IMG/VR virus record: IMGVR_UViG_3300029787_000169
Span: 1-23,834 of that record
Direction: 5' to 3' (one strand)
DNA length: 23,834 bases
From: a virus
The position numbers and the translations under genes are program-made. The notes beneath the pieces are model-generated. The model worked only from the letters and a program-made list of their open reading frames with translations. It searched no databases and was not told the DNA's origin. Positions within the stretch are counted from its first letter, which is position 1. Every line of letters starts with the position of its first letter. This document shows, piece after piece, positions 3,986 to 23,454 of the stretch.

Positions 3986-4866
3986 TACTTGAGTATGAGG
4001 ACATAGTTATTGGCAGTGATTTAAAGGCGACATTGTTCGCCTTTAATAATAATCTACCCATCATTTTTTCTCAGCCTCGCCGCCCTTTTCGATTCGACTT
4101 CCTTGAGCCGAATACAAATTTAGGGTGCGTTAAACTTACTAGCGCAGGTGAGCTAGAACTTACTAGAACTAATGGTGTTAAAGTTGTTGGTTCGAGGGCA
4201 GAACTTCTGTGGGAGCGCTTGATGTTTTTGCTCAATCTCGATGGCAAAGTTCCGCTCGCAAATCTCTGCACGTCCATGAGATTTGATGGCGAACATTTAG
4301 TCTGCTCCAATGAATATTCAAAGATAGGTACGTTAAACTTTAGTAATTGCTTTTATTTTGGTGACGATAATATTTCTGGACTGGTGAGTGAAAAAGAGCT
4401 TGCTAATCCCGCCTATACATGTTATGATTGGGTTGCATTTAATAGCGGGGGTAAGCACAAAATTGATTACATTTGGGTAGGCGACGACTTCGTTAAGGAA
4501 ATTTGGTTCTACTCATCAGATCGTATGTGCGGTAACTCTCCGGTAAAAGATGCGTGCGTTGTCTCAACTCTGACGCAAAATCAGCTGTCAGAGTTTGACT
4601 ACAGCGAAACTATGGCGCGCTTCAAAATGATCTCCGAGATGGAGAAAAGAGGAATGAAAGGAAGACAGAATGGCTACTCAAGCAACGGAAATCCCAAACA
4701 TTATAAGTTTCGAACAACACCTATCGGACGAACAAAACGCAGAGATTCAATGGAGATTGTATCAAAAGACGATCAAGTATCGCTTCCAGAAGTATCAGAG
4801 AGAACTTTACTTACGGATCTTGCGGCGTCTTGTGCCGCCTACGATAGATTTCTAAGGTATTTGTAG
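3982..4866 (+). CDS. Hypothetical protein with basic C-terminal region
   Basis: A 294-residue protein that I do not recognise. It starts with TTG overlapping the endolysin stop (TTGA), which suggests translational coupling and low expression; no other start is close. The N-terminal half opens with a beta-strand-like LEYEDIVIGSDLKATLFAF and is rich in aromatic residues. Residues about 215-260 are basic and hydrophilic (MEKRGMKGRQNG, TPIGRTKRRDS), possibly disordered or nucleic-acid-binding. There are no transmembrane segments and no cysteine cluster. The next gene follows directly after the stop. Its position between lysin and the nucleotidyltransferase-like gene gives no clear hint of function. 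Confidence 0.75.
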   Translation: MILEYEDIVIGSDLKATLFAFNNNLPIIFSQPRRPFRFDFLEPNTNLGCVKLTSAGELELTRTNGVKVVGSRAELLWERLMFLLNLDGKVPLANLCTSMRFDGEHLVCSNEYSKIGTLNFSNCFYFGDDNISGLVSEKELANPAYTCYDWVAFNSGGKHKIDYIWVGDDFVKEIWFYSSDRMCGNSPVKDACVVSTLTQNQLSEFDYSETMARFKMISEMEKRGMKGRQNGYSSNGNPKHYKFRTTPIGRTKRRDSMEIVSKDDQVSLPEVSERTLLTDLAASCAAYDRFLRYL

Positions 4867-5763
4867 ATGCCACAACATATTCATATGGCCGGCATCATTC
4901 CTATAGCCGGCTTAAAAACTGATTTTAATCAACAATTACCAGAAGTTATGATGCCTATTGACGCTGGATTTACCGCTATTCAGAAGTCAGTTTACGAATG
5001 TGCGATGGTTGGTTGTCAGACAATTTGGATTGTCGCCAATAATGATTTGGCACCAATTATAAGAAACGCAGTAGGAGAATGGGTTTACGACCCAGTTTAT
5101 TATGAAACAAAATCAATGTTTCCATCGGAAAACCGAAAAGAAATACCTATTTATTATGTCCCTATCCATCCAAACGATCGTGATAAGCGCGATTCACATG
5201 GATGGTCTATTCTCTATGGAGCACACAGCGCATGGTTAGTCGCAGCAAAAATATCAAAATGGGTATTGCCAGAAAAGTATTACGTTTCGTTCCCGCTATC
5301 TGCTTACGATTTACAATCACTGCGTACACATCGATTAGAAATTGCTGCAAGGGACGCGAACTTTTTTCTTTCTTACGATGGTAAAACTATTAAAGATGGA
5401 TTACCGATAGCATTCACATTCAATGGAGACGATTTTAAAGCATGCCGAAACTACATAAACCAAACAACCTCTCGGGAATATTTACCCCGTTTACCCGGCC
5501 AAACCTTCCCGACGCAGAAACTGCCATACGACGATCGATGGTCAGCCCGACACTTCCCGCTGAAAAAGATATTCAAGAAAGTATCAGAGAAAAACAGAAT
5601 CCTAAAAAGCGTTGATTGGTATTATAATATATCCAAATGGGATAATTATCGAGCCTACTTGGGTTCAAAAAATATTATAGAAAAACCAAAACACCCATTG
5701 ACAATCACACACAAACACGCTAAAATACCATATAGGGTCGAGGAAGGCAATGAAGATACTTAA
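4867..5763 (+). CDS. Degenerate nucleotidyltransferase-like (GT-A fold) protein
   Basis: A 298-residue protein whose first 180 residues look like a sugar-nucleotide or NTP transferase: AGIIPIAGLKTDF then LPEVMMPID (about 8-33), a helix with VYECAMVGCQTIWIVANND (42-60), and later YGAHSAWLVAAKI with PEKYYVSFP (117-142). In active RmlA/GlmU-type enzymes the signature is GxGTRxxPxxxxxPKP; here Arg is Asp and the catalytic Lys is Glu, so normal transfer chemistry is doubtful. Residues after about 200 are basic and unfamiliar. It begins immediately after the upstream stop (TAG ATG) and overlaps the next gene by 14 nt. It could act in modification of surface sugars or nucleotides, together with the cupin at 23086, but this is inference. 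Confidence 0.55.
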   Translation: MPQHIHMAGIIPIAGLKTDFNQQLPEVMMPIDAGFTAIQKSVYECAMVGCQTIWIVANNDLAPIIRNAVGEWVYDPVYYETKSMFPSENRKEIPIYYVPIHPNDRDKRDSHGWSILYGAHSAWLVAAKISKWVLPEKYYVSFPLSAYDLQSLRTHRLEIAARDANFFLSYDGKTIKDGLPIAFTFNGDDFKACRNYINQTTSREYLPRLPGQTFPTQKLPYDDRWSARHFPLKKIFKKVSEKNRILKSVDWYYNISKWDNYRAYLGSKNIIEKPKHPLTITHKHAKIPYRVEEGNEDT

Positions 5764-9467: not shown

Positions 9468-10076
9468 ATGAATATTATTTATACACCGAGCCCTCTTCTC
9501 AAAGAGGTAAAGTTTAGAAGCGAGAGTTTGCCTGTGGTTATTCGCGTCAACAAGTTTGATGAGAAAGCAGCGCAGGATTTCTCCAAAGATGTGGCAAGAG
9601 CCCAGAACACGGGACAGCCTACCTTGCCAATTATTATTGATAGTTATGGAGGTCAGGTTTACAGTCTCATGTCAATGATTTCTGATATCCAGCATTCTCG
9701 TATCCCTGTCGCAACAATCGTGCAAGGTAAGGCAATGTCGTGTGGAGCTATTTTATTTAGTTTTGGGGTGGATGGCATGCGCTATATGGATCCCGATGCT
9801 ACTGTAATGATTCATGATGTTAGTTCAATGGCATGGGGAAAAGTAGAAGAAGTTAAAGTTAGTGCCCAGGAAACTGAGCGCCTCAACCAGAAGGTTTATA
9901 AAATGATGGCCAAAAACTGCGGACATGACGAGAATTACTTTCTTGACATAGTTCATGAAAAAGGGCATGCTGATTGGTTTCTTGACGCAAAGGAGTGCAG
10001 AAGACATAAGCTAGCTAACAAGTTACGCATCCCAGAAATGAAGATTGGCGTAAAAGTTCAATTTGAGTTCAAATAA
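9468..10076 (+). CDS. ClpP-like serine protease (first copy)
   Basis: A 202-residue protein with the ClpP/crotonase-like protease fold. IIIDSYGGQVYSLM (55-68) matches the ClpP substrate-strand region with its SxGG motif; GKAMSCGAIL has the nucleophile Ser91, VMIHDVSS has His116, and ADWFLDAKE supplies Asp169 where ClpP has DRFLSAxE. The triad therefore looks complete. It is 4 nt after the polymerase gene with only a weak ribosome site (AGGATAAAA). No ClpX or ClpA unfoldase is in the window, so it may act alone, recruit a host unfoldase, or serve as a head-maturation protease. A second, divergent copy is at 16828. Confidence 0.85.
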   Translation: MNIIYTPSPLLKEVKFRSESLPVVIRVNKFDEKAAQDFSKDVARAQNTGQPTLPIIIDSYGGQVYSLMSMISDIQHSRIPVATIVQGKAMSCGAILFSFGVDGMRYMDPDATVMIHDVSSMAWGKVEEVKVSAQETERLNQKVYKMMAKNCGHDENYFLDIVHEKGHADWFLDAKECRRHKLANKLRIPEMKIGVKVQFEFK

Positions 10077-10079
10077 TTG

Positions 10080-10108
10080 TTGACAAACAGATTTCAGTTT
10101 GTTACAAT
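10080..10108 (+). promoter_or_regulatory. Sigma70-type promoter P1 for the 10134 operon
   Basis: TTGACA at 10080-10085 and TACAAT at 10103-10108 are separated by exactly 17 bases. The expected start is near 10115, giving a short leader before the AAGGAGG ribosome site (10121-10127). It sits in the first intergenic gap over 50 bases in the window. A dyad ACAAAC (10083-10088) / GTTTGT (10097-10102) lies inside the promoter and could be an operator or coincidental. Confidence 0.8.
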
Positions 10109-10133
10109 AATAAAGTATCCAAGGAGGGATAAA

Positions 10134-10385
10134 ATGGCTTCAACTAATGAAGAAAGAAAGCGTTATGTCAAGGAATATATTCGTTCGTTGGCAGCAATTG
10201 AAGAGTGTATCGAGCCCTATAAGGAGCAGAAGCGTGAGCTTCGTTCCGAGTTCCGTGAAAATGGATGGCTTAATACTGATGAGATCCGAGCTGCTGTGAA
10301 GGCTTATCGTCTTTATAAGGGTAAGGTAAATATTGACGAGGTTGTTGAAAACTTCAACATGCTCTCGGGAGGAGATGGGGAGTGA
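10134..10385 (+). CDS. Small charged helical protein, unknown
   Basis: An 83-residue, highly charged, probably all-helical protein (KRYVKEYIRSLAAIEECIEP, YKEQKRELRSEFRENG). It is the first gene after promoter P1. I chose the ATG at 10134 because AAGGAGGG stands 6 nt before it and because the upstream in-frame TTG codons fall inside the promoter. The C-terminal part (TDEIRAAVKAYRLYKGKVNIDEVVENF) resembles small phage proteins that accompany replication genes, but I cannot assign a family. It overlaps the dUTPase start as GTGA, so the two are coupled. Confidence 0.75.
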   Translation: MASTNEERKRYVKEYIRSLAAIEECIEPYKEQKRELRSEFRENGWLNTDEIRAAVKAYRLYKGKVNIDEVVENFNMLSGGDGE

Positions 10386-10843
10386 TCATCGAATACACCA
10401 AGACGCGAGACACAGCGCATAGCCCGCAGCGCGCAAATCCATCGGACGCAGGATTGGACGTGTTCTACTCTGCGACAGAGCCGCAAGAAATTATTTCGGT
10501 CCATCCCAATAATAGTATGCTGGTACCCACAGGCCTGCGCTTTGGTGTGCCTCATGGCTACATGCTGGAGGTAAAAAATCGCTCAAGCGTGGCAGCTAAG
10601 TTAAACTTGGTAGTCGGCGCTTGTGTAATTGATTCGGGATATGATGGAGAAGTGTTCATCAATGTCCACAACATTGGACGCGATACTCGCGTTATCCAAG
10701 ACGGCGACAAGATCGCGCAACTGGTCATGATGCCAGTAGTGCATTTTCAGCCGCAAGAAAATACAGAGGGTACTCTATATGATTATCCTAAAACAATTAG
10801 CAATAGAGGGACGGGAGCCCTAGGGAGTACAGATAATGACTAA
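10382..10843 (+). CDS. dut: dUTP diphosphatase (trimeric dUTPase)
   Basis: It hydrolyses dUTP to dUMP and pyrophosphate, keeping uracil out of phage DNA and supplying dUMP for dTMP synthesis. All five motifs of the trimeric family are present in 153 residues: motif 1 SDAGLDVF (about 21-28), motif 2 VKNRSSVAAK (64-73), motif 3 VGACVIDSGYDGEV (77-90) with the catalytic Asp and Tyr, motif 4 GDKIAQLV (107-114), and motif 5 RGTGALGSTD (142-151). In motif 5 the usual Phe that stacks on uracil (GGFGST) is replaced by Leu (GALGST). The GTG start overlaps the upstream stop. It works alongside the RNR at 579. Confidence 0.96.
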   Translation: MIIEYTKTRDTAHSPQRANPSDAGLDVFYSATEPQEIISVHPNNSMLVPTGLRFGVPHGYMLEVKNRSSVAAKLNLVVGACVIDSGYDGEVFINVHNIGRDTRVIQDGDKIAQLVMMPVVHFQPQENTEGTLYDYPKTISNRGTGALGSTDND

Positions 10844-12584
10844 GAAAACAATTGATATTACACCGACAGCGAATGTTCTACATTCCTTAAAGAGAACAGG
10901 ATATCACTGGTCTCAAGCTTTGATGGATATCATTGACAATTCAGTGGACACATTACGTGAGCGTTACAATAAGACTGGAAAGGAAGATGGTTTTATAAGA
11001 ATTATCCCTATCGGGTATGACGAAAAAGAACATAGGCAAAAAACTCGTTTTATCGTTGTTGCTGACAATGGCATGGGTATCGGTCCTGATGAACTACAAG
11101 AAATTTTGCGTTTAGGTGAGTCAGGCAAGAGAGGCACTGATGCATTGGGAACTTTCGGCATGGGACTAAAAACTGCCGCCATGTCTTTAGGTAGCAAATT
11201 GAGCATTGTTAGCACAACCTCCACAGTTGAGAAGCTCAACGCTGTTACTTGGGATGTTCAATCGTGCATGAAGAGTGGTAAGTTTGAGGCATCTTACAGC
11301 GATAAGCCGCATAGAGAAATTATTAATAGCTATTTAGAGTTTATGGAGGGAGATCGTCCTGGTACGATGATCATAATTGGGGATTTACACGATGGGTTTC
11401 CAACTATTCCAGCTACAGTTCAAACAATTAATTCTAAGTGCGCACACACTTATCGCCATTTGTTAAACTCAGACAGTCCGTTGGGCTTCCATTTTCCATT
11501 TAAGATCATTGCGGGAAAGACCGTCGCATCTAAAGAAGTGGAAAAGTCTAACGATCCGTTGTGCCTTGATCATGAGCTGACCAGTGTTTTGATTGGCGAC
11601 TCAAAAGGGGCATTCAAATCGGTAAAATATGGTAAGTATAAATTTAATATTCGTATGACTAGATTTGATTCCGATGGTAAGCGCGGCGGCACCTCCCGCA
11701 AAGCCAGAACCGGCCAGGGGCTTGGAAAGTCAATCGTTGGTACTCACAGACAAGGAGTGTACTGGTTAAGGGAGGGCCGAGAAATTTGCTGCGGCTCCTT
11801 TTGGTCGTCCCACCCAGTTCTTTCTAATGTTTACGCAGAAATTTCTTTTGAAGACAGCGGAGTGGCCACGGAAAGCAGTCCTATTAGAATGGATTTTGGC
11901 AAGAAAGGGGTCGATTTGGATGATGGTTTGCGCGATCACTTGCTCAGGCACATCTTTGCTCCGCATCTTGATAAAATTAAGAAAGAAGCAACTGCAAAAG
12001 CAAAAACTAAGAGAAAGTCAGATCGTACTGAGATTATGAAAAAGGTTGCGGAAGCCGCCCTGCCAACCGATCAATTTGGGCGCGCCAAGGCACCCCCTAA
12101 AGATCGCAAAACGCAGGCGATACAGAGTCTTTTTAGTCCACCTAAAAAGAACAATAAAACAAAACGCACTAACAGTAAGTATCGCGCGACTGGTGTAGGC
12201 TTGGGAGACAACCAAACACAATTAGAGTTTGAAGAATTGTCGTGGCCTGAATCCGCATTGCCGTTTTGTATCGACTACACTGTTGGTCAGCCGGTATGCA
12301 AGATTCAAATTAATATTGAAGATCCATGGGTTGAAAAAAACATCTATCTTTGCGAAAATACTGAACTAATTGCACGACATTTGCAATTGATTGCGGCCAT
12401 GACTGTCGCATGCATGTACGAAGATCAGGAGAAGAGGCAAGAATTGTACATTAAGATGGGAGCCTTGTTGAACCTCTTTGATGATGACTTTGGTCGCGTG
12501 GCTTCGGATCTTGAAGATTCTGAAATTGCTCCAGTGCCGCCTCAAAAGGTACACGTCCTCCAACAGCAGGAGGCAATTAACTAA
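10836..12584 (+). CDS. GHKL (Hsp90/MORC/MutL-like) ATPase
   Basis: A 582-residue ATPase of the gyrase/Hsp90/histidine-kinase/MutL superfamily. The N-box is ALMDIIDNSVDT (28-39), G1 is VADNGMGIG (75-83), and G2 is GTFGMGLKTAAMSLG (105-119). A second (S5-like) domain has GVYWLREGREI at 307-317, like the GVYxxRNxRLI element of MORC proteins. The general-base Glu of the N-box (E33 in Hsp90, E42 in GyrB) is Asp31 here, so turnover may be slow or altered. Residues about 370-455 are lysine-rich and probably disordered; the C-terminal part (460-575) is unrecognised. It overlaps dUTPase by 8 nt and shares one base with the Dam gene (TAATG). ATP-gated dimerisation around DNA or a client protein is a family-based inference. 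Confidence 0.8.
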   Translation: MTKKTIDITPTANVLHSLKRTGYHWSQALMDIIDNSVDTLRERYNKTGKEDGFIRIIPIGYDEKEHRQKTRFIVVADNGMGIGPDELQEILRLGESGKRGTDALGTFGMGLKTAAMSLGSKLSIVSTTSTVEKLNAVTWDVQSCMKSGKFEASYSDKPHREIINSYLEFMEGDRPGTMIIIGDLHDGFPTIPATVQTINSKCAHTYRHLLNSDSPLGFHFPFKIIAGKTVASKEVEKSNDPLCLDHELTSVLIGDSKGAFKSVKYGKYKFNIRMTRFDSDGKRGGTSRKARTGQGLGKSIVGTHRQGVYWLREGREICCGSFWSSHPVLSNVYAEISFEDSGVATESSPIRMDFGKKGVDLDDGLRDHLLRHIFAPHLDKIKKEATAKAKTKRKSDRTEIMKKVAEAALPTDQFGRAKAPPKDRKTQAIQSLFSPPKKNNKTKRTNSKYRATGVGLGDNQTQLEFEELSWPESALPFCIDYTVGQPVCKIQINIEDPWVEKNIYLCENTELIARHLQLIAAMTVACMYEDQEKRQELYIKMGALLNLFDDDFGRVASDLEDSEIAPVPPQKVHVLQQQEAIN

Positions 12585-15122: not shown

Positions 15123-15448
15123 TGTCCGATGACGTAGCCAATCCTCACTTGGATAAGAAGGTTGCGTTTGTTGAAAACACACACCAGCACGCAAAACTTA
15201 TTTTAAAGTTGCGTCATGATGGTGTCACTCAGTCAAAGTTTTTTCGGGCAATGATCGCTGGGTACCTTGATGGCGATGAGCGCATACAAAGCTACATTGA
15301 CGATATGAAGCCGCAGAATAAAAAAAAGAAGGCAAAATCAAAGCAGTTGAGAGACAAAGGAAAGCAGAAGATGGAAGATTTTGGATTAAACGACGGAGAG
15401 ATAGAGAATATTTTTGATCTCATTGAAGAGGAGCACCCACAGCTATGA
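15122..15448 (+). CDS. Small basic protein, possibly ribbon-helix-helix-like
   Basis: A 108-residue protein. The part AKLILKLRHDGVTQSKFFRAMIAGYL (about 24-49) has the strand-turn-helix-helix look of a ribbon-helix-helix DNA-binding unit, followed by a very lysine-rich stretch (NKKKKAKSKQ at about 69-78) and an acidic C-terminus. A DNA-binding or regulatory role is therefore possible but not shown. I prefer the ATG at 15122, which shares one base with the stop of the upstream gene (TAATG) and has AGGAA 6 nt before, over the in-frame TTG at 15116. It is coupled to the sigma-like gene downstream (ATGA). Confidence 0.7.
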   Translation: MSDDVANPHLDKKVAFVENTHQHAKLILKLRHDGVTQSKFFRAMIAGYLDGDERIQSYIDDMKPQNKKKKAKSKQLRDKGKQKMEDFGLNDGEIENIFDLIEEEHPQL

Positions 15449-15708
15449 AAAAGGTTGATGGTTTACGTGAGTGCTCACGTCAATGTATGACAAAAAAGAA
15501 AGAATGTAAAGAAACGGAATGTAGACTATGGCAAGACTACCCAGATGAATACAATTGCACACTAATTTCAGTTTACGAACGCGGCCCCATGACACTTAGA
15601 GAGGTTGCAGAGCGCGAGCATCTTTCGTTTGCCCGCATCAAACAAATAGAAACTAAGGCTTTAAAAAAACTCAAGTCTTTAAATTTGATAAGTTGTTTTC
15701 GATTTTGA
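15445..15708 (+). CDS. Sigma-70 region 4-like protein with N-terminal cysteine cluster
   Basis: An 87-residue protein. Residues about 48-78 (GPMTLREVAEREHLSFARIKQIETKALKKL) match the sigma region 4.2 helix-turn-helix that reads the -35 element, including the typical RIKQIExxALxKL recognition-helix pattern. The first 40 residues carry five cysteines (10, 14, 21, 26, 38; CRxW context), a possible zinc or iron site. There is no region 2, so it cannot melt a -10 element by itself. It may replace or recruit host sigma region 4 at phage promoters, like a small co-activator (compare T4 gp55/gp33 division of labour), or act as a simple HTH repressor. The ATG overlaps the upstream stop. It is followed by a 65-nt gap with no promoter I can support. 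Confidence 0.75.
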   Translation: MKKVDGLRECSRQCMTKKKECKETECRLWQDYPDEYNCTLISVYERGPMTLREVAEREHLSFARIKQIETKALKKLKSLNLISCFRF

Positions 15709-15773
15709 GGCTATTATGGAAAGATGTTACTATTTATTTTTGAGTTTATGTCATTAAACAAGGAGATTTTACT

Positions 15774-16352
15774 ATGGCTCGTAAGAAACTATTAACAGAA
15801 GGCGAGATTCGCCAATTTATGAAACTCGCTAACTTGCGACCTATTGGTGAGGATCGCCTTAGTGAGATGGGCGGCGGCTACATGGCCGGTGCTCGTGATG
15901 ACGATGAAGAAGATGAGGGCGCCGAGGGAGACGAAGGTGAGGATGTCGAAGGCATGCTTGGTCTTGAAGAGCCAGAGGGTGTTGATGAACCAGCAGAAGC
16001 TGGCCCCGAACTTGACGCCGGCGATGGCATGATGGGCGGAATGGACGCCGACGAACGTGAGGAAATACTGACGGATGTTGTTATGGCTGTAGCCCAAAAA
16101 CTTGGTATTGAGGACAGAGTTGATGTTGAGGAAGTAGAGGGTGATGCTGACATGGAAGACATGGGCGACATGGGGGATATGGGAGACATGGAAGATGATG
16201 AGCCCGCGGAAGACCCAGCTGACGAATTAGATCCGGATGATGTTGTTGCCGAAGTAGTGAATAGAGTTGCATCTAGGCTTCAGAGAGAAAATCGCAAAGA
16301 GCAGTTGGCCGAACAACTCGCCGCTCAGATTATGAAAAGACTTACAAAATAG
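15774..16352 (+). CDS. Extremely acidic protein, possible scaffold/internal head protein
   Basis: A 192-residue protein, most of it Asp/Glu-rich (for example DDDEEDEGAEGDEGEDVEG at about 42-60) with a D-M-G/E repeat at 126-140, between a basic N-terminus (ARKKLLTEGEIRQFMKLANL) and a basic helical C-terminus (LQRENRKEQLAEQLAAQIMKRLTK). That layout, acidic centre with helical ends, recalls scaffold or prohead core proteins; the N-terminal LLTEGE resembles the short head-targeting peptides of T4-type internal proteins, which a prohead protease cleaves after Glu. It could instead be a DNA mimic. AAGGAG lies 8 nt before the ATG. It is the last gene before the terminator at 16381. Confidence 0.7.
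   Translation: MARKKLLTEGEIRQFMKLANLRPIGEDRLSEMGGGYMAGARDDDEEDEGAEGDEGEDVEGMLGLEEPEGVDEPAEAGPELDAGDGMMGGMDADEREEILTDVVMAVAQKLGIEDRVDVEEVEGDADMEDMGDMGDMGDMEDDEPAEDPADELDPDDVVAEVVNRVASRLQRENRKEQLAEQLAAQIMKRLTK
16149..16193 (+). repeat. Nine-base in-frame tandem repeat, five units
   Basis: Five consecutive units of GAYATGGRN encode Asp-Met-Glu/Gly inside the acidic protein. Third-position changes between units suggest that the peptide repeat is kept while the DNA drifts. Confidence 0.75.
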
Positions 16353-16353
16353 C

Positions 16354-16382
16354 TTGACACAGTTATAAACGTATGTTATATT
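16354..16382 (+). promoter_or_regulatory. Sigma70-type promoter P2
   Basis: TTGACA at 16354-16359 and TATATT at 16377-16382 are separated by 17 bases. The predicted start, near 16389, lies inside the left arm of the terminator hairpin at 16381-16408. It would drive the membrane-anchored protein, the second ClpP-like protein and the 676-aa gene. Confidence 0.78.
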
Positions 16383-16415
16383 AACCACTGAGCACACTCA
16401 GTGGTTAATTTTTTT
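16381..16415 (+). terminator. Intrinsic terminator with perfect 12-bp stem
   Basis: TTAACCACTGAG (16381-16392) and CTCAGTGGTTAA (16397-16408) are perfect inverted repeats around a CACA loop, followed by seven T (16409-16415). This is a textbook rho-independent terminator for transcripts arriving from the P1 operon. Its first two bases are also the end of the P2 -10 element. Confidence 0.88.
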
Positions 16416-16424
16416 GAGGTGATT

Positions 16425-16847
16425 ATGGAGCATTTCTGGTTATATATATTGGTTTTTGTGTTTGGGTATCTGACACATAAAACATTTTATTTCTTTCGTT
16501 CCATTAAGATCAGTATTGGTCTAATACGTGTGTCGCAACTAATTAGTTTAGCCGTGTTATCCAGATCTATGGAAAATTTTTACTATTCACATACTGCCCG
16601 TCTTCGTTACATGAGGGAGCACGGACACGACGATAAGAGTATTAAAGACGCGAGGCGTTCTTTTAACATTGAAATTAACAATTTTAAGAAAAAAACAATT
16701 GAAGAAATATTAGACTTGCATCCTAATTTTTACAGCCCAATTGTTGATTTTGATAACTGGAAATCGGCTATGGACTTTTTAGAAAATAATAAACACTTTG
16801 TGTTACAACTTTTAAATCAGGATAAAAATGATAAAAAAACTTCTTGA
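16425..16847 (+). CDS. Membrane-anchored small protein, unknown
   Basis: A 140-residue protein with an N-terminal hydrophobic segment (WLYILVFVFGYLTH, about 4-18), followed by a moderately hydrophobic helix (IGLIRVSQLISLAVL, about 30-44) and a long hydrophilic helical region with many aromatic and basic residues. Probably anchored in the inner membrane with the C-terminus in the cytoplasm. The start at ATG 16425 is preferred because TGAGGTGA stands 4-11 nt before it; an in-frame GTG at 16401 lies inside the terminator. It is the first gene of the P2 unit and overlaps the ClpP-like gene by 20 nt. Function unknown. Confidence 0.75.
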   Translation: MEHFWLYILVFVFGYLTHKTFYFFRSIKISIGLIRVSQLISLAVLSRSMENFYYSHTARLRYMREHGHDDKSIKDARRSFNIEINNFKKKTIEEILDLHPNFYSPIVDFDNWKSAMDFLENNKHFVLQLLNQDKNDKKTS

Positions 16848-17457
16848 CAAAATAACAAATATTGAGAGTGAGGAGCAAAAAGTCGTATTAATTGACGCGG
16901 ATTCACTAGATATGAGATCGGAGCCCGACTTAAGAACTATTGGTATGTTTTGCGATGTTCAAGAAGAAAAAGTTGCAGAAGTCATACATGCTATGCTTTA
17001 TCTCAACGAGACAAACAAGATAGAAAAAGATCCAACAAAGAAGCGTCCTATAGAATTTTATCTATCAACGTATGGCGGCAGCGCTGATGACATGTTTGCC
17101 CTCTATGACATAATGCGAACTATTCGACAAGAAACCGAAATTCACACATTAGGCCTGGGCAAAGTTATGTCTGCTGGGGTATTACTTTTAGCAGCGGGTA
17201 CAAGGGGTAAGCGTCGGATAGCAAAAAACTGTCGTGTGATGATTCATTCGGTGGCGGCAGGCAATCATGGTAACTTACAGGATTTGACTAACGAACTAGA
17301 AGCAATCTCAGATCTGCAAAAAATGTACACTAATTGTTTAGTAGCCGAAACCAATATGACTAAAAGCGATATAAAAGAAATGCTTAATCGCAATGTTAAT
17401 GTCTATTTATCAGCAGAAGAAGCTGTTAAGCTTGGGATTGCAGATATTATAATTTAA
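16828..17457 (+). CDS. ClpP-like protein (second copy, altered triad)
   Basis: A 209-residue ClpP-fold protein: YLSTYGGSADDMFALYDIM (78-96) matches the ClpP SxGG region, GKVMSAGVLLLAAG has nucleophile Ser115, VMIHSVAAG has His140, and VYLSAEEAVKLGIAD matches the ClpP C-terminal DRxLSAxEAxxxGLxD. The triad Asp of ClpP falls on Asn191, so activity may be weakened or the acid supplied otherwise. It has a longer N-terminal extension (about 30 residues) than the copy at 9468 and only modest similarity to it, so the two are old paralogs or separate acquisitions. AGGA lies 6 nt upstream of the ATG. Neighbouring acidic and 676-aa genes and groEL make prohead maturation a reasonable guess. Confidence 0.84.
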   Translation: MIKKLLDKITNIESEEQKVVLIDADSLDMRSEPDLRTIGMFCDVQEEKVAEVIHAMLYLNETNKIEKDPTKKRPIEFYLSTYGGSADDMFALYDIMRTIRQETEIHTLGLGKVMSAGVLLLAAGTRGKRRIAKNCRVMIHSVAAGNHGNLQDLTNELEAISDLQKMYTNCLVAETNMTKSDIKEMLNRNVNVYLSAEEAVKLGIADIII

Positions 17458-19511: not shown

Positions 19512-19540
19512 TTGACAAAAAACTATTCAGGGATTATAAT
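19512..19540 (+). promoter_or_regulatory. Sigma70-type consensus promoter P3 for groEL
   Basis: TTGACA at 19512-19517 and TATAAT at 19535-19540, both perfect consensus, are separated by 17 bases. Predicted start near 19547, only about 16 nt before the groEL ATG. A dyad GAATAG (19504-19509) / CTATTC (19523-19528) flanks the -35 element. No CIRCE (HrcA) element is present. Confidence 0.88.
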
Positions 19541-19562
19541 ATAAACTAACCATGAGGGAACA

Positions 19563-21134
19563 ATGAGCAGAGCTTATGATGACAATCAAACTCTACAACA
19601 GAAAATTATTAAAGGCGCTAACGTACTGGCAGACAACGTGGCGTCTACACTCGGGCCGAAAGGTCGCAATGTACTGCTAAAAGAGAAAGACAAGCAACCG
19701 TTTATCACCAAGGACGGTGTGACAGTTGCTGCATTTGTAGCATTGGAGGATCCATTTGAAAATGCAGGCGCTCAAATCTTACGCCAAGCGGCTATTGAAA
19801 CTAATAACGAGGCAGGGGATGGAACAACGACATCAACGGTTCTTGCAAGAGCTATCTTGCGAGAATCCCAAAGGTTCATCGCATCCGGTGTGTCTCCTAT
19901 CGAGCTACAACGTGGCATCGATTTGGCTGTTAGGGAAGTGGTAGTCAATCTTGAACAGACATCCCAGCCAGTCAAAAGCTTGTCTGACATTGAACATGTT
20001 GCTGCTATATCAGCAAACAATGATACAACAATTGGCAAATTAATTGCAACAGCGGTCGATAAAGTTGGACAAGACGGATCAATTACAATTGAAGAATCGC
20101 GTTCTATTGAAACTTCTTTGGATGTTACTGAGGGTTTTAAATTTGATGCTGGTTTTTGTGCCGGTGCTTTTGTAACAGATGAAAGGCGCGGCTTAATGCA
20201 CTATGAGGAGCCACTATTTTTGGTTACCGATCATAAGATTTCAAATGTTGAATCAATCTTGCCTGTTTTGGAAATGATTGCCCGCGAAAATCGGCCCCTT
20301 ATTATGGTGGCTGAAGATATTGAAGGTCAGGCTCTCGCCGCGATGATTATGAATGCTATGCGTGGTACGTTAAAAGTGGCAGCAATTAAGGCCCCAATGT
20401 ACGGCGAGGAGCGTAGAAATGTTTTATCAGACTTGGCTATGTCCGTGGGTGCAACATTTATTACCCGAGAGAGTGGCACCAAACTCGCTGATATTCAAAT
20501 GGTAGATCTGGGAACTGCAAAGTTTATTGAGAGTAACAAGAATAGCACAACTGTTGTTGGTGGAAATTGTAATTATGAGTTAATTGAAGAGAGAATTGGT
20601 TCGTTGAAGCAGCTGATTAAAGAAACTAGCTCACTCAGCGAGTGTTCTCGTATACAAGATCGAATTGTTCGCCTTTCCTCTGGTGTTGCCGTAATTAGAG
20701 TCGGTGGCGCCACTGAGGTTGAGATGACTGAAAAGAAACACCGAATTGAAGATGCTTTAGAAGCGGTAAGATCAGCCCAGCAAGAGGGAATTGTTATGGG
20801 CGGGGGTACGGCGTTACTGAAAGCTTCGGAAAAGATTAATATTGTTGGCGATGGTAATGAGCAGCAGTATGGCGCAACAGTAATTCGCAACGCTTGTCAA
20901 GAGCCACTGCGACAAATGGCTTTCAATGCATCTGAATCCCCAGATATAATAATCGATAAAATTTTGGCAGCTGATCAAAATTATGGCTGGAATTTTAGAA
21001 CCGGCGAATTGGTTAATCTATTTAAAAATGGCATTATAGATCCCGTTAAGGTTACCCGTGTTGCTTTGCAAAATGCTGCTAGCTGTGCAGGAACTTTAAT
21101 AACTACTAATTACGGGATTGTACAAACGGAGTAA
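19563..21134 (+). CDS. groEL: GroEL-type chaperonin
   Basis: A complete 523-residue group I chaperonin (E. coli GroEL is 548). ATP-binding motifs are intact: TLGPKGRNV (29-37), TKDGVTVA (49-56), AGDGTTTSTVLA (84-95), and RIEDALEAVRSAQQEGIVMGGGTALL with the ATPase Asp. In the apical domain, GroEL's GYLSPYF reads GFCAGAF, so Tyr203, a substrate- and GroES-contact residue, is Ala, while the downstream hydrophobic helix (VESILPVLEMI) is kept. The C-terminal GGM repeat tail is absent; the protein ends at TNYGIVQTE. It would form a folding ring, probably with the co-chaperonin at 2775, for phage proteins such as capsid. GAGGGA lies 3 nt before the ATG, and the gene has its own consensus promoter. 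Confidence 0.97.
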   Translation: MSRAYDDNQTLQQKIIKGANVLADNVASTLGPKGRNVLLKEKDKQPFITKDGVTVAAFVALEDPFENAGAQILRQAAIETNNEAGDGTTTSTVLARAILRESQRFIASGVSPIELQRGIDLAVREVVVNLEQTSQPVKSLSDIEHVAAISANNDTTIGKLIATAVDKVGQDGSITIEESRSIETSLDVTEGFKFDAGFCAGAFVTDERRGLMHYEEPLFLVTDHKISNVESILPVLEMIARENRPLIMVAEDIEGQALAAMIMNAMRGTLKVAAIKAPMYGEERRNVLSDLAMSVGATFITRESGTKLADIQMVDLGTAKFIESNKNSTTVVGGNCNYELIEERIGSLKQLIKETSSLSECSRIQDRIVRLSSGVAVIRVGGATEVEMTEKKHRIEDALEAVRSAQQEGIVMGGGTALLKASEKINIVGDGNEQQYGATVIRNACQEPLRQMAFNASESPDIIIDKILAADQNYGWNFRTGELVNLFKNGIIDPVKVTRVALQNAASCAGTLITTNYGIVQTE

Positions 21135-23415: not shown

Positions 23416-23454
23416 TCCAAATTAGTAAACTATTTATAATGTTGAGGTTTATTT

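What the first reader, a model, noticed from the sequence alone, without database searches (positions are those of the whole stretch)
16354..16415. Promoter whose start site lies inside the upstream operon's terminator hairpin
P2 (TTGACA-N17-TATATT) ends at 16382, where a perfect 12-bp hairpin with seven T begins at 16381. A transcript from P2 starts near 16389, so it lacks most of the hairpin's left arm and keeps only about 4 bp (TGAG/CTCA); it should escape termination. A transcript arriving from P1 has the whole stem and should stop. The same bases therefore end one transcript and let the next begin, with no spacing wasted.
Basis: partly seen in the sequence, partly recalled or inferred. 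Interest (0 to 1): 0.65.

Follow-up and report, generated by a model that had tools for sequence, protein, structure and literature searches.

The report
Promoter starting inside a terminator hairpin
In a family of uncultured, mostly marine T4-like phages, the stop signal that ends one gene's transcript and the start signal for the next genes share the same few bases, and this layout is kept in 101 of 102 relatives, so it is very likely a real working joint between a late gene and an early operon.

Summary
TTGACA-N17-TATATT (16354-16382, extended -10 TG) runs into a 13-bp perfect hairpin (16380-16409) followed by T7, then the Shine-Dalgarno and ATG 16425. It is not chance: 200 simulated windows gave no such overlap. 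The decisive evidence is comparative. Of 102 non-redundant junctions behind the same upstream gene, 101 have a sigma70 promoter (at least 10/12, spacer exactly 17) starting 0-6 nt after the stop codon. In all 101 the hairpin's left edge lies -5 to +5 nt from the end of the -10. Arms covary and loop length varies, which fits an RNA terminator rather than an operator. In neighbouring DNA it is the only recurrent terminator, and no other strong promoter there overlaps one.

The upstream gene has a different promoter: a conserved ACTATTTA element that elsewhere precedes tail, head and lysis genes, whereas sigma70 promoters precede replication genes. The site is best read as a compact joint where a solitary late gene's transcript stops and early/middle transcription restarts. 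The promoter body also gives the 23-34 nt clearance from the stop codon that terminators need. The escape idea holds for the window, but about 12 of 101 relatives would keep 8 or more stem pairs. No RNA ends were mapped.

The parts
15729..15736 (+). P1: ACTATTTA element, candidate phage late promoter of the upstream gene (first part of ACTATTTATTTTTGAGTTT)
   Evidence: Invariant in 63 of 64 distinct relatives found through ClpP, one base different in the other; genome-wide upstream-of-gene enrichment; precedes structural and lysis genes
15774..16352 (+). Upstream gene: acidic protein, MARKKLLTEGEIRQFMKLANL...MKRLTK, 192 aa, function unknown, conserved ends and variable acidic middle
   Evidence: no PHROG or Pfam match
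16354..16359 (+). P2 -35 hexamer TTGACA, 1 nt after the TAG stop of the acidic gene
   Evidence: gap of 0-6 nt in 101 of 102 junctions
16374..16382 (+). P2 extended -10: TGT TATATT
   Evidence: TG present in 52 of 65 distinct cassettes, spacer 17 in all
16380..16409 (+). 13-bp terminator hairpin; left arm 16380-16392, loop 16393-16396, right arm 16397-16409; its first 3 bases are the last 3 of the -10
   Evidence: compensatory changes in relatives
16387..16390 (+). Predicted P2 start sites (A16387 or G16390), inside the left arm
   Evidence: inference from -10 position; not mapped
16409..16415 (+). T7 tract: release point of upstream transcripts, also 5' UTR of the P2 transcript
   Evidence: T-rich tract kept in relatives
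16416..16421 (+). Shine-Dalgarno GAGGTG directly after the T tract
   Evidence: same abutment in most relatives
16425..16847 (+). First gene of the P2 unit: small protein of 140 aa with a hydrophobic N-terminus
   Evidence: no family match
16828..17457 (+). Second gene of the P2 unit: ClpP-like protease
   Evidence: Pfam CLP_protease 1e-32
19512..19540 (+). Next conserved sigma70 promoter (12/12), before GroEL; no terminator overlap seen in any relative

Best explanation
The site is a compact terminator/promoter joint between two transcription units of different timing class. Upstream, a solitary late-type gene (acidic protein) is transcribed from a phage-specific ACTATTTA promoter; its mRNA, and any early transcript running through the gene, forms the full 13-bp hairpin plus U-tract and ends at about 16415. 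Because that terminator would also cut off early/middle transcription of the following genes (small membrane-like protein, ClpP and beyond), a strong host-sigma70 promoter restarts it there. P2 is placed so that its start lies inside the hairpin's left arm; its RNA lacks the outer part of the left arm, so the U-proximal half of the stem cannot form, the terminator does not act on it, and the T-tract becomes ordinary 5' UTR just before the Shine-Dalgarno. The promoter body (29 nt) also serves as the spacer that keeps a ribosome at the stop codon from blocking hairpin folding. Shown: the anatomy, its conservation, covariation, uniqueness, and the split of the two promoter classes. Inferred: start and stop positions, escape of P2 RNA, lateness of P1, the ribosome-spacer role.
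For: Anatomy and folds. Conservation: 80 of 80 loci found through the downstream ClpP protein; 101/102 non-redundant junctions, spacer exactly 17 in all 101, left edge -5..+5 from the -10 end. Covariation at all six consensus pairs, 67 distinct left arms and loops of 3-8 nt. Uniqueness: 68 of 76 plus-strand terminators in 557 kb are at this site; 0 of 103 other strong promoters overlap one, and the same in long contigs. Timing classes: ACTATTTA 23 times 15-70 nt before gene starts, best of 280 permutations (mean 0.8, next 9); behind it head-tail adaptor, tail sheath, tape measure, endolysin; behind sigma70 SSB, UvsX, exonuclease, DnaB, GroEL. Median hairpin energy -16.2 full against -4.4 kcal/mol for the P2 RNA, over the 87 junctions that pass the strict stem and T-tract filter. 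Stop-to-hairpin distance 23-34 nt, at least 27 in 87/101, matching the >27 nt needed for full termination in E. coli (PMC4824070).
Against: No RNA data. About 12/101 relatives would keep 8 or more stem pairs in P2 RNA by the +7 rule, and 36 more keep 6-7, so escape by truncation is not equally clean everywhere. In one relative (L123) the sigma70 promoter is gone, an ACTATTTA stands in its place and the hairpin lies wholly downstream of it. The host is unknown, so sigma70 specificity is assumed from the consensus. ACTATTTA is only a candidate late promoter.
Confidence: 0.75

Rival explanations
1. The inverted repeat is an operator: a dimeric repressor binds it and shuts P2 off; the T-run is incidental.
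For: A perfect palindrome over the -10 and start is the classic operator position; the outer AACCA/TGGTT is kept in 77 of 101 arms.
Against: Whole arms change with their partners (AACCACTG, AAGGGCCGCC, AAAATGGTCAC, AACCGTCAAC) and loop length runs 3-8, which would change the dimer spacing; a T-rich tract follows on one side; no such repeat is found at the other conserved promoter.
Confidence: 0.07
2. Attenuator: P2 transcripts do meet the hairpin and are partly terminated after about 25 nt, so that the joint tunes or conditions expression of the downstream operon.
For: GC-rich relatives (L069, L074, L093, L155) keep 7-10 stem pairs close to the U-tract even with the start at +7.
Against: In most relatives the kept stem is short and separated from the U-tract by unpaired right-arm bases; the left edge never lies beyond +5, as if a complete hairpin downstream of the start were avoided.
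Confidence: 0.1
3. 5'-end stabiliser: the residual hairpin at the very 5' end of P2 mRNA protects it from decay, and terminator function is secondary.
For: P2 RNA in many relatives begins with a 4-8 bp stem.
Against: Residual stem length is not kept (0-11 bp), whereas the full stem and T-tract are.
Confidence: 0.04
4. Mere compaction: a terminator and a promoter were squeezed together in a tight genome, with no selection on the overlap itself.
For: Intergenic space is minimal throughout; some terminators elsewhere are directly followed by ACTATTTA elements.
Against: Spacer, stop-to-promoter gap and hairpin offset are almost fixed over divergence down to about 60% protein identity, while the sequences of the arms turn over.
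Confidence: 0.04

Closest known systems
Early promoter p98 directly after terminator t97 in Staphylococcus Kayvirus 515A1 (PMC7698491)
   Same: Large lytic myophage; terminator and early promoter adjacent at the border of early and late transcription
   Different: There the promoter follows the terminator and late transcripts almost do not stop; here promoter and hairpin share bases and the start is inside the stem
Filamentous phage (fd/M13) gene VIII-gene III terminator and gene III promoter region (from memory, not tested here)
   Same: Terminator of a highly expressed gene next to or overlapping the promoter of the following gene
   Different: Unrelated virus; detailed geometry could not be checked in the library
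T4-type late promoters: TATAAATA in T4, CTAAATA in Aeh1 (PMC1524935, PMC2988020)
   Same: Short element without a -35, found before late genes; ACTA(A/T)(A/T)TA resembles the Aeh1 form; the phages here carry T4-type capsid and portal genes
   Different: The middle bases differ (TT for AA); no late sigma (gp55) was looked for
RNA polymerase recycling after intrinsic termination (Kang 2020 PMC6978380; PMC11347151)
   Same: Polymerase left on DNA after termination can restart at the nearest promoter; here that promoter is a few bases away
   Different: Shown in vitro with E. coli enzyme and engineered templates; not tested for this site

Membership tests
Intrinsic (Rho-independent) terminator | Stable stem of at least about 7 bp followed at once by a U-rich tract | tested here: met
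   13 bp, -17.8 kcal/mol, z -8.6, T7
Intrinsic (Rho-independent) terminator | Stem conserved as structure, not as sequence | tested here: met
   All six consensus pairs show changes on both sides
Intrinsic (Rho-independent) terminator | RNA 3' ends at the U-tract | not testable with these tools
   No transcript data for this virus
Sigma70 promoter | TTGACA and TATAAT with a 16-18 nt spacer | tested here: met
   11/12 here, at least 10/12 with spacer 17 in 101 junctions
Sigma70 promoter | Transcription start 6-9 nt after the -10 | not testable with these tools
   Only predicted
T4-type late promoter (for P1) | Short motif recurring upstream of late genes | tested here: met
   ACTATTTA enrichment and the genes behind it; not every occurrence lies before a gene
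T4-type late promoter (for P1) | Consensus TATAAATA | tested here: not met
   Element is ACTATTTA, nearer to the Aeh1 form; so it is called late-type only
T4-type late promoter (for P1) | Phage late sigma gp55 and clamp dependence | not tested
   gp55 was not searched for; a sigma region 4-like gene is present
Repressor operator | Conserved half-sites at fixed spacing | tested here: not met
   Arms and loop lengths vary

The most novel reading that the evidence does not exclude
The joint is a relay or switch, not just a border. Polymerase that terminates at the hairpin stays on the DNA a few bases from P2 and restarts there. In addition, a sigma70 polymerase parked at P2 covers the terminator DNA, so upstream 3'-end formation and P2 initiation exclude each other and change over when the phage replaces sigma70 late in infection.
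Probability: 0.12. Interest if true: 0.75.

Novelty: new variant of a known kind. Interest (0 to 1): 0.5.

Why it matters
It is a natural part in which a stop codon, ribosome spacer, promoter, terminator and ribosome-binding site are packed into about 75 nt and kept fixed through strong sequence turnover. It makes testable how close a start site may lie to a terminator before polymerase stops on its own hairpin, and whether polymerase recycling at terminators is used by phages. It also gives a candidate late-promoter motif (ACTAWWTA) for an uncultured T4-like lineage, which helps to sort its genes into early and late.

Tried and rejected
Operator reading: rejected on varying arms and loops. 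Known RNA family or riboswitch: no Rfam hit. Chance: no overlap in 200 simulated windows. General habit of these genomes: rejected, no other strong sigma70 promoter overlaps a terminator. Shine-Dalgarno masking in the P2 RNA (CACUCA with UGAGGUG): the fold is no better than shuffles, z +0.6. A second ACTATTTA in the same genome (L082 4782-4789, in G000 28381-28396) lies at the end of a coding sequence and may be chance. Link between the sigma region 4-like gene and P2: not supported, 17 junctions without its motif still have P2. Cultured relatives: none in the phage collection by DNA or protein, only distant ClpP and GroEL. Literature searches for promoter-terminator overlap gave nothing direct. 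Three first calls failed on a wrong start coordinate, and one script on file names.

Full report
WHAT IS THERE. The window is part of a 34.5-kb virus record. At 16354-16382 lies TTGACA-N17-TATATT with an extended -10; at 16380-16409 a 13-bp perfect hairpin with a CACA loop; then T7, GAGGTG and ATG 16425. The TAG stop of the upstream acidic gene ends 1 nt before TTGACA. The whole span from stop codon to start codon is about 72 nt. The full hairpin folds at -17.8 kcal/mol (z -8.6); RNAs that start at 16387-16391 can keep only 6 to 2 of its pairs and lose all pairs next to the U-tract. In 200 simulated windows no promoter of at least 10/12 overlapped a terminator of at least 10 bp.

CONSERVATION. 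A scan of IMG/VR with the downstream ClpP protein, which does not use the site itself, gave 80 loci with 58-86% identity. All 80 have the promoter, hairpin and T-rich tract in the same order. A second, partly independent scan with the upstream element added more. Together they give 102 non-redundant junctions behind the acidic gene; 101 have a sigma70 promoter of at least 10/12 with a spacer of exactly 17, starting 0-6 nt after the stop, and the hairpin's left edge lies -5 to +5 nt from the -10 end in every one. In two of the 101 (L041, L057) the automatic fold picked a weaker alternative pairing, but the hairpin is there by eye. The exception, L123, has the same gene order but an ACTATTTA in place of the sigma70 promoter, and a hairpin that lies further downstream.

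TERMINATOR, NOT OPERATOR. The stem is kept by compensatory changes: six of six consensus pairs have them. There are 67 distinct arms, and some clades have unrelated arms. Loop length runs 3-8. A T-rich tract follows on the coding side. Because the alignment was made by sequence and the sequences are related, the counts are not independent events, but the change of whole arms is hard to explain otherwise.

A SPECIAL PLACE. In 557 kb of surrounding DNA, 68 of 76 plus-strand terminator-like hairpins are at this site, and none of 103 other promoters of at least 11/12 (counted on both strands) overlaps one. The other conserved sigma70 promoter, before GroEL, has no hairpin. In longer contigs there are further terminators, some directly followed by ACTATTTA, but no second overlap with a sigma70 promoter.

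TWO PROMOTER CLASSES. The acidic gene is preceded by ACTATTTA in 63 of 64 distinct relatives, with one base changed in the other. In 357 kb ACTATTTA occurs 41 times on the coding strand, 23 of them 15-70 nt before a gene start, the best of 280 permutations of the same letters (next best 9); its reverse complement occurs once. Behind it are a head-tail adaptor, tail sheath, tape measure protein and an endolysin; behind sigma70 promoters are an SSB, UvsX, exonuclease, DnaB helicases, an endonuclease and GroEL. The contigs carry T4-type Gp23 and portal genes. The element resembles the late promoter of Aeromonas phage Aeh1, CTAAATA (PMC1524935). So P1 is a candidate late promoter and P2 an early/middle one. 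In the window the acidic gene is a lone late-type gene among early-type genes: sigma70-like sites lie at 5698 and 10080 upstream and at 19512 downstream, and the next ACTATTTA is at 23429.

HOW IT WORKS. Transcripts of the acidic gene carry the whole hairpin and should stop. The genes behind need a promoter of their own, and P2 gives it. With the start inside the left arm, the P2 RNA cannot rebuild the U-proximal half of the stem. Distance from stop codon to hairpin is 23-34 nt, at least 27 in 87 of 101; in E. coli a terminator reaches full efficiency only beyond about 27 nt from the stop, because the ribosome otherwise blocks folding (PMC4824070). A 29-nt promoter placed between stop and hairpin meets that need. 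This last point is inference.

LIMITS. Start sites are predicted from the -10. By that rule 53 of 101 junctions keep 0-5 pairs, 36 keep 6-7 and 12 keep 8 or more. The last group, several with GC-rich stems, would be expected to terminate early unless the start is a little further downstream or polymerase ignores a hairpin so close to the start. No cultured relative is known, and the host is unknown. That the lineage is mostly marine is judged from the kind of metagenomes named in the contig list, not from sample records that were read.

RELATION TO KNOWN THINGS. Neighbouring terminators and promoters are common, and a Kayvirus has an early promoter directly behind a terminator at an early/late border (PMC7698491). 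Sharing of bases with the start inside the stem, fixed over a whole lineage, was not found in the papers that could be searched; from memory, the fd/M13 gene VIII-gene III region is similar, but this was not tested. It is a variant of a known kind of joint. Recycling of polymerase from terminator to nearest promoter (PMC6978380, PMC11347151) offers a bolder, untested reading.

Noticed in passing
window 15729-15736, 23429-23436; L208, L210, L200, L203, L206 and others: ACTATTTA (variants ACTAATTA) is a candidate late-promoter motif of this uncultured T4-like lineage, before tail sheath, tape measure, head-tail adaptor and endolysin genes.
   Followed up: partly
window 15445-15708: Short protein with a sigma-70 region 4 (Pfam 9e-8) directly upstream of the acidic gene's late-type promoter; could be a gp33-like sigma4 partner. 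Its motif is missing in about 18 of 101 relatives.
   Followed up: partly
L123 1160-1290 (minus strand): Natural variant: the sigma70 promoter is replaced by an ACTATTTA element while the hairpin stays; the sigma region 4-like gene is also missing there.
   Followed up: partly
G002 (L203 minus strand, 10099-10141) and G003 (L206 minus strand, 4450-4494 and 17014-17059): Strong terminators followed within about 10 nt by ACTATTTA: close terminator/late-promoter joints without overlap.
   Followed up: no
window 19512-19563: Consensus 12/12 sigma70 promoter before phage GroEL, conserved in most relatives that reach it.
   Followed up: partly
window 9468-10076 and 16828-17457: Two ClpP-like proteins in one phage; only the second was matched to Pfam here, the first is judged from its sequence.
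   Followed up: no
window 10836-12584: Protein that looks like a GHKL-type ATPase (judged from its sequence), followed by a DNA methyltransferase-like gene.
   Followed up: no
window 15774-16352 and relatives: Acidic protein with conserved ends (LLTEGEIRQFMKLANL and AERIMKRLTK) and a length varying from about 190 to 315 aa by an acidic repeat-like middle; function unknown.
   Followed up: no
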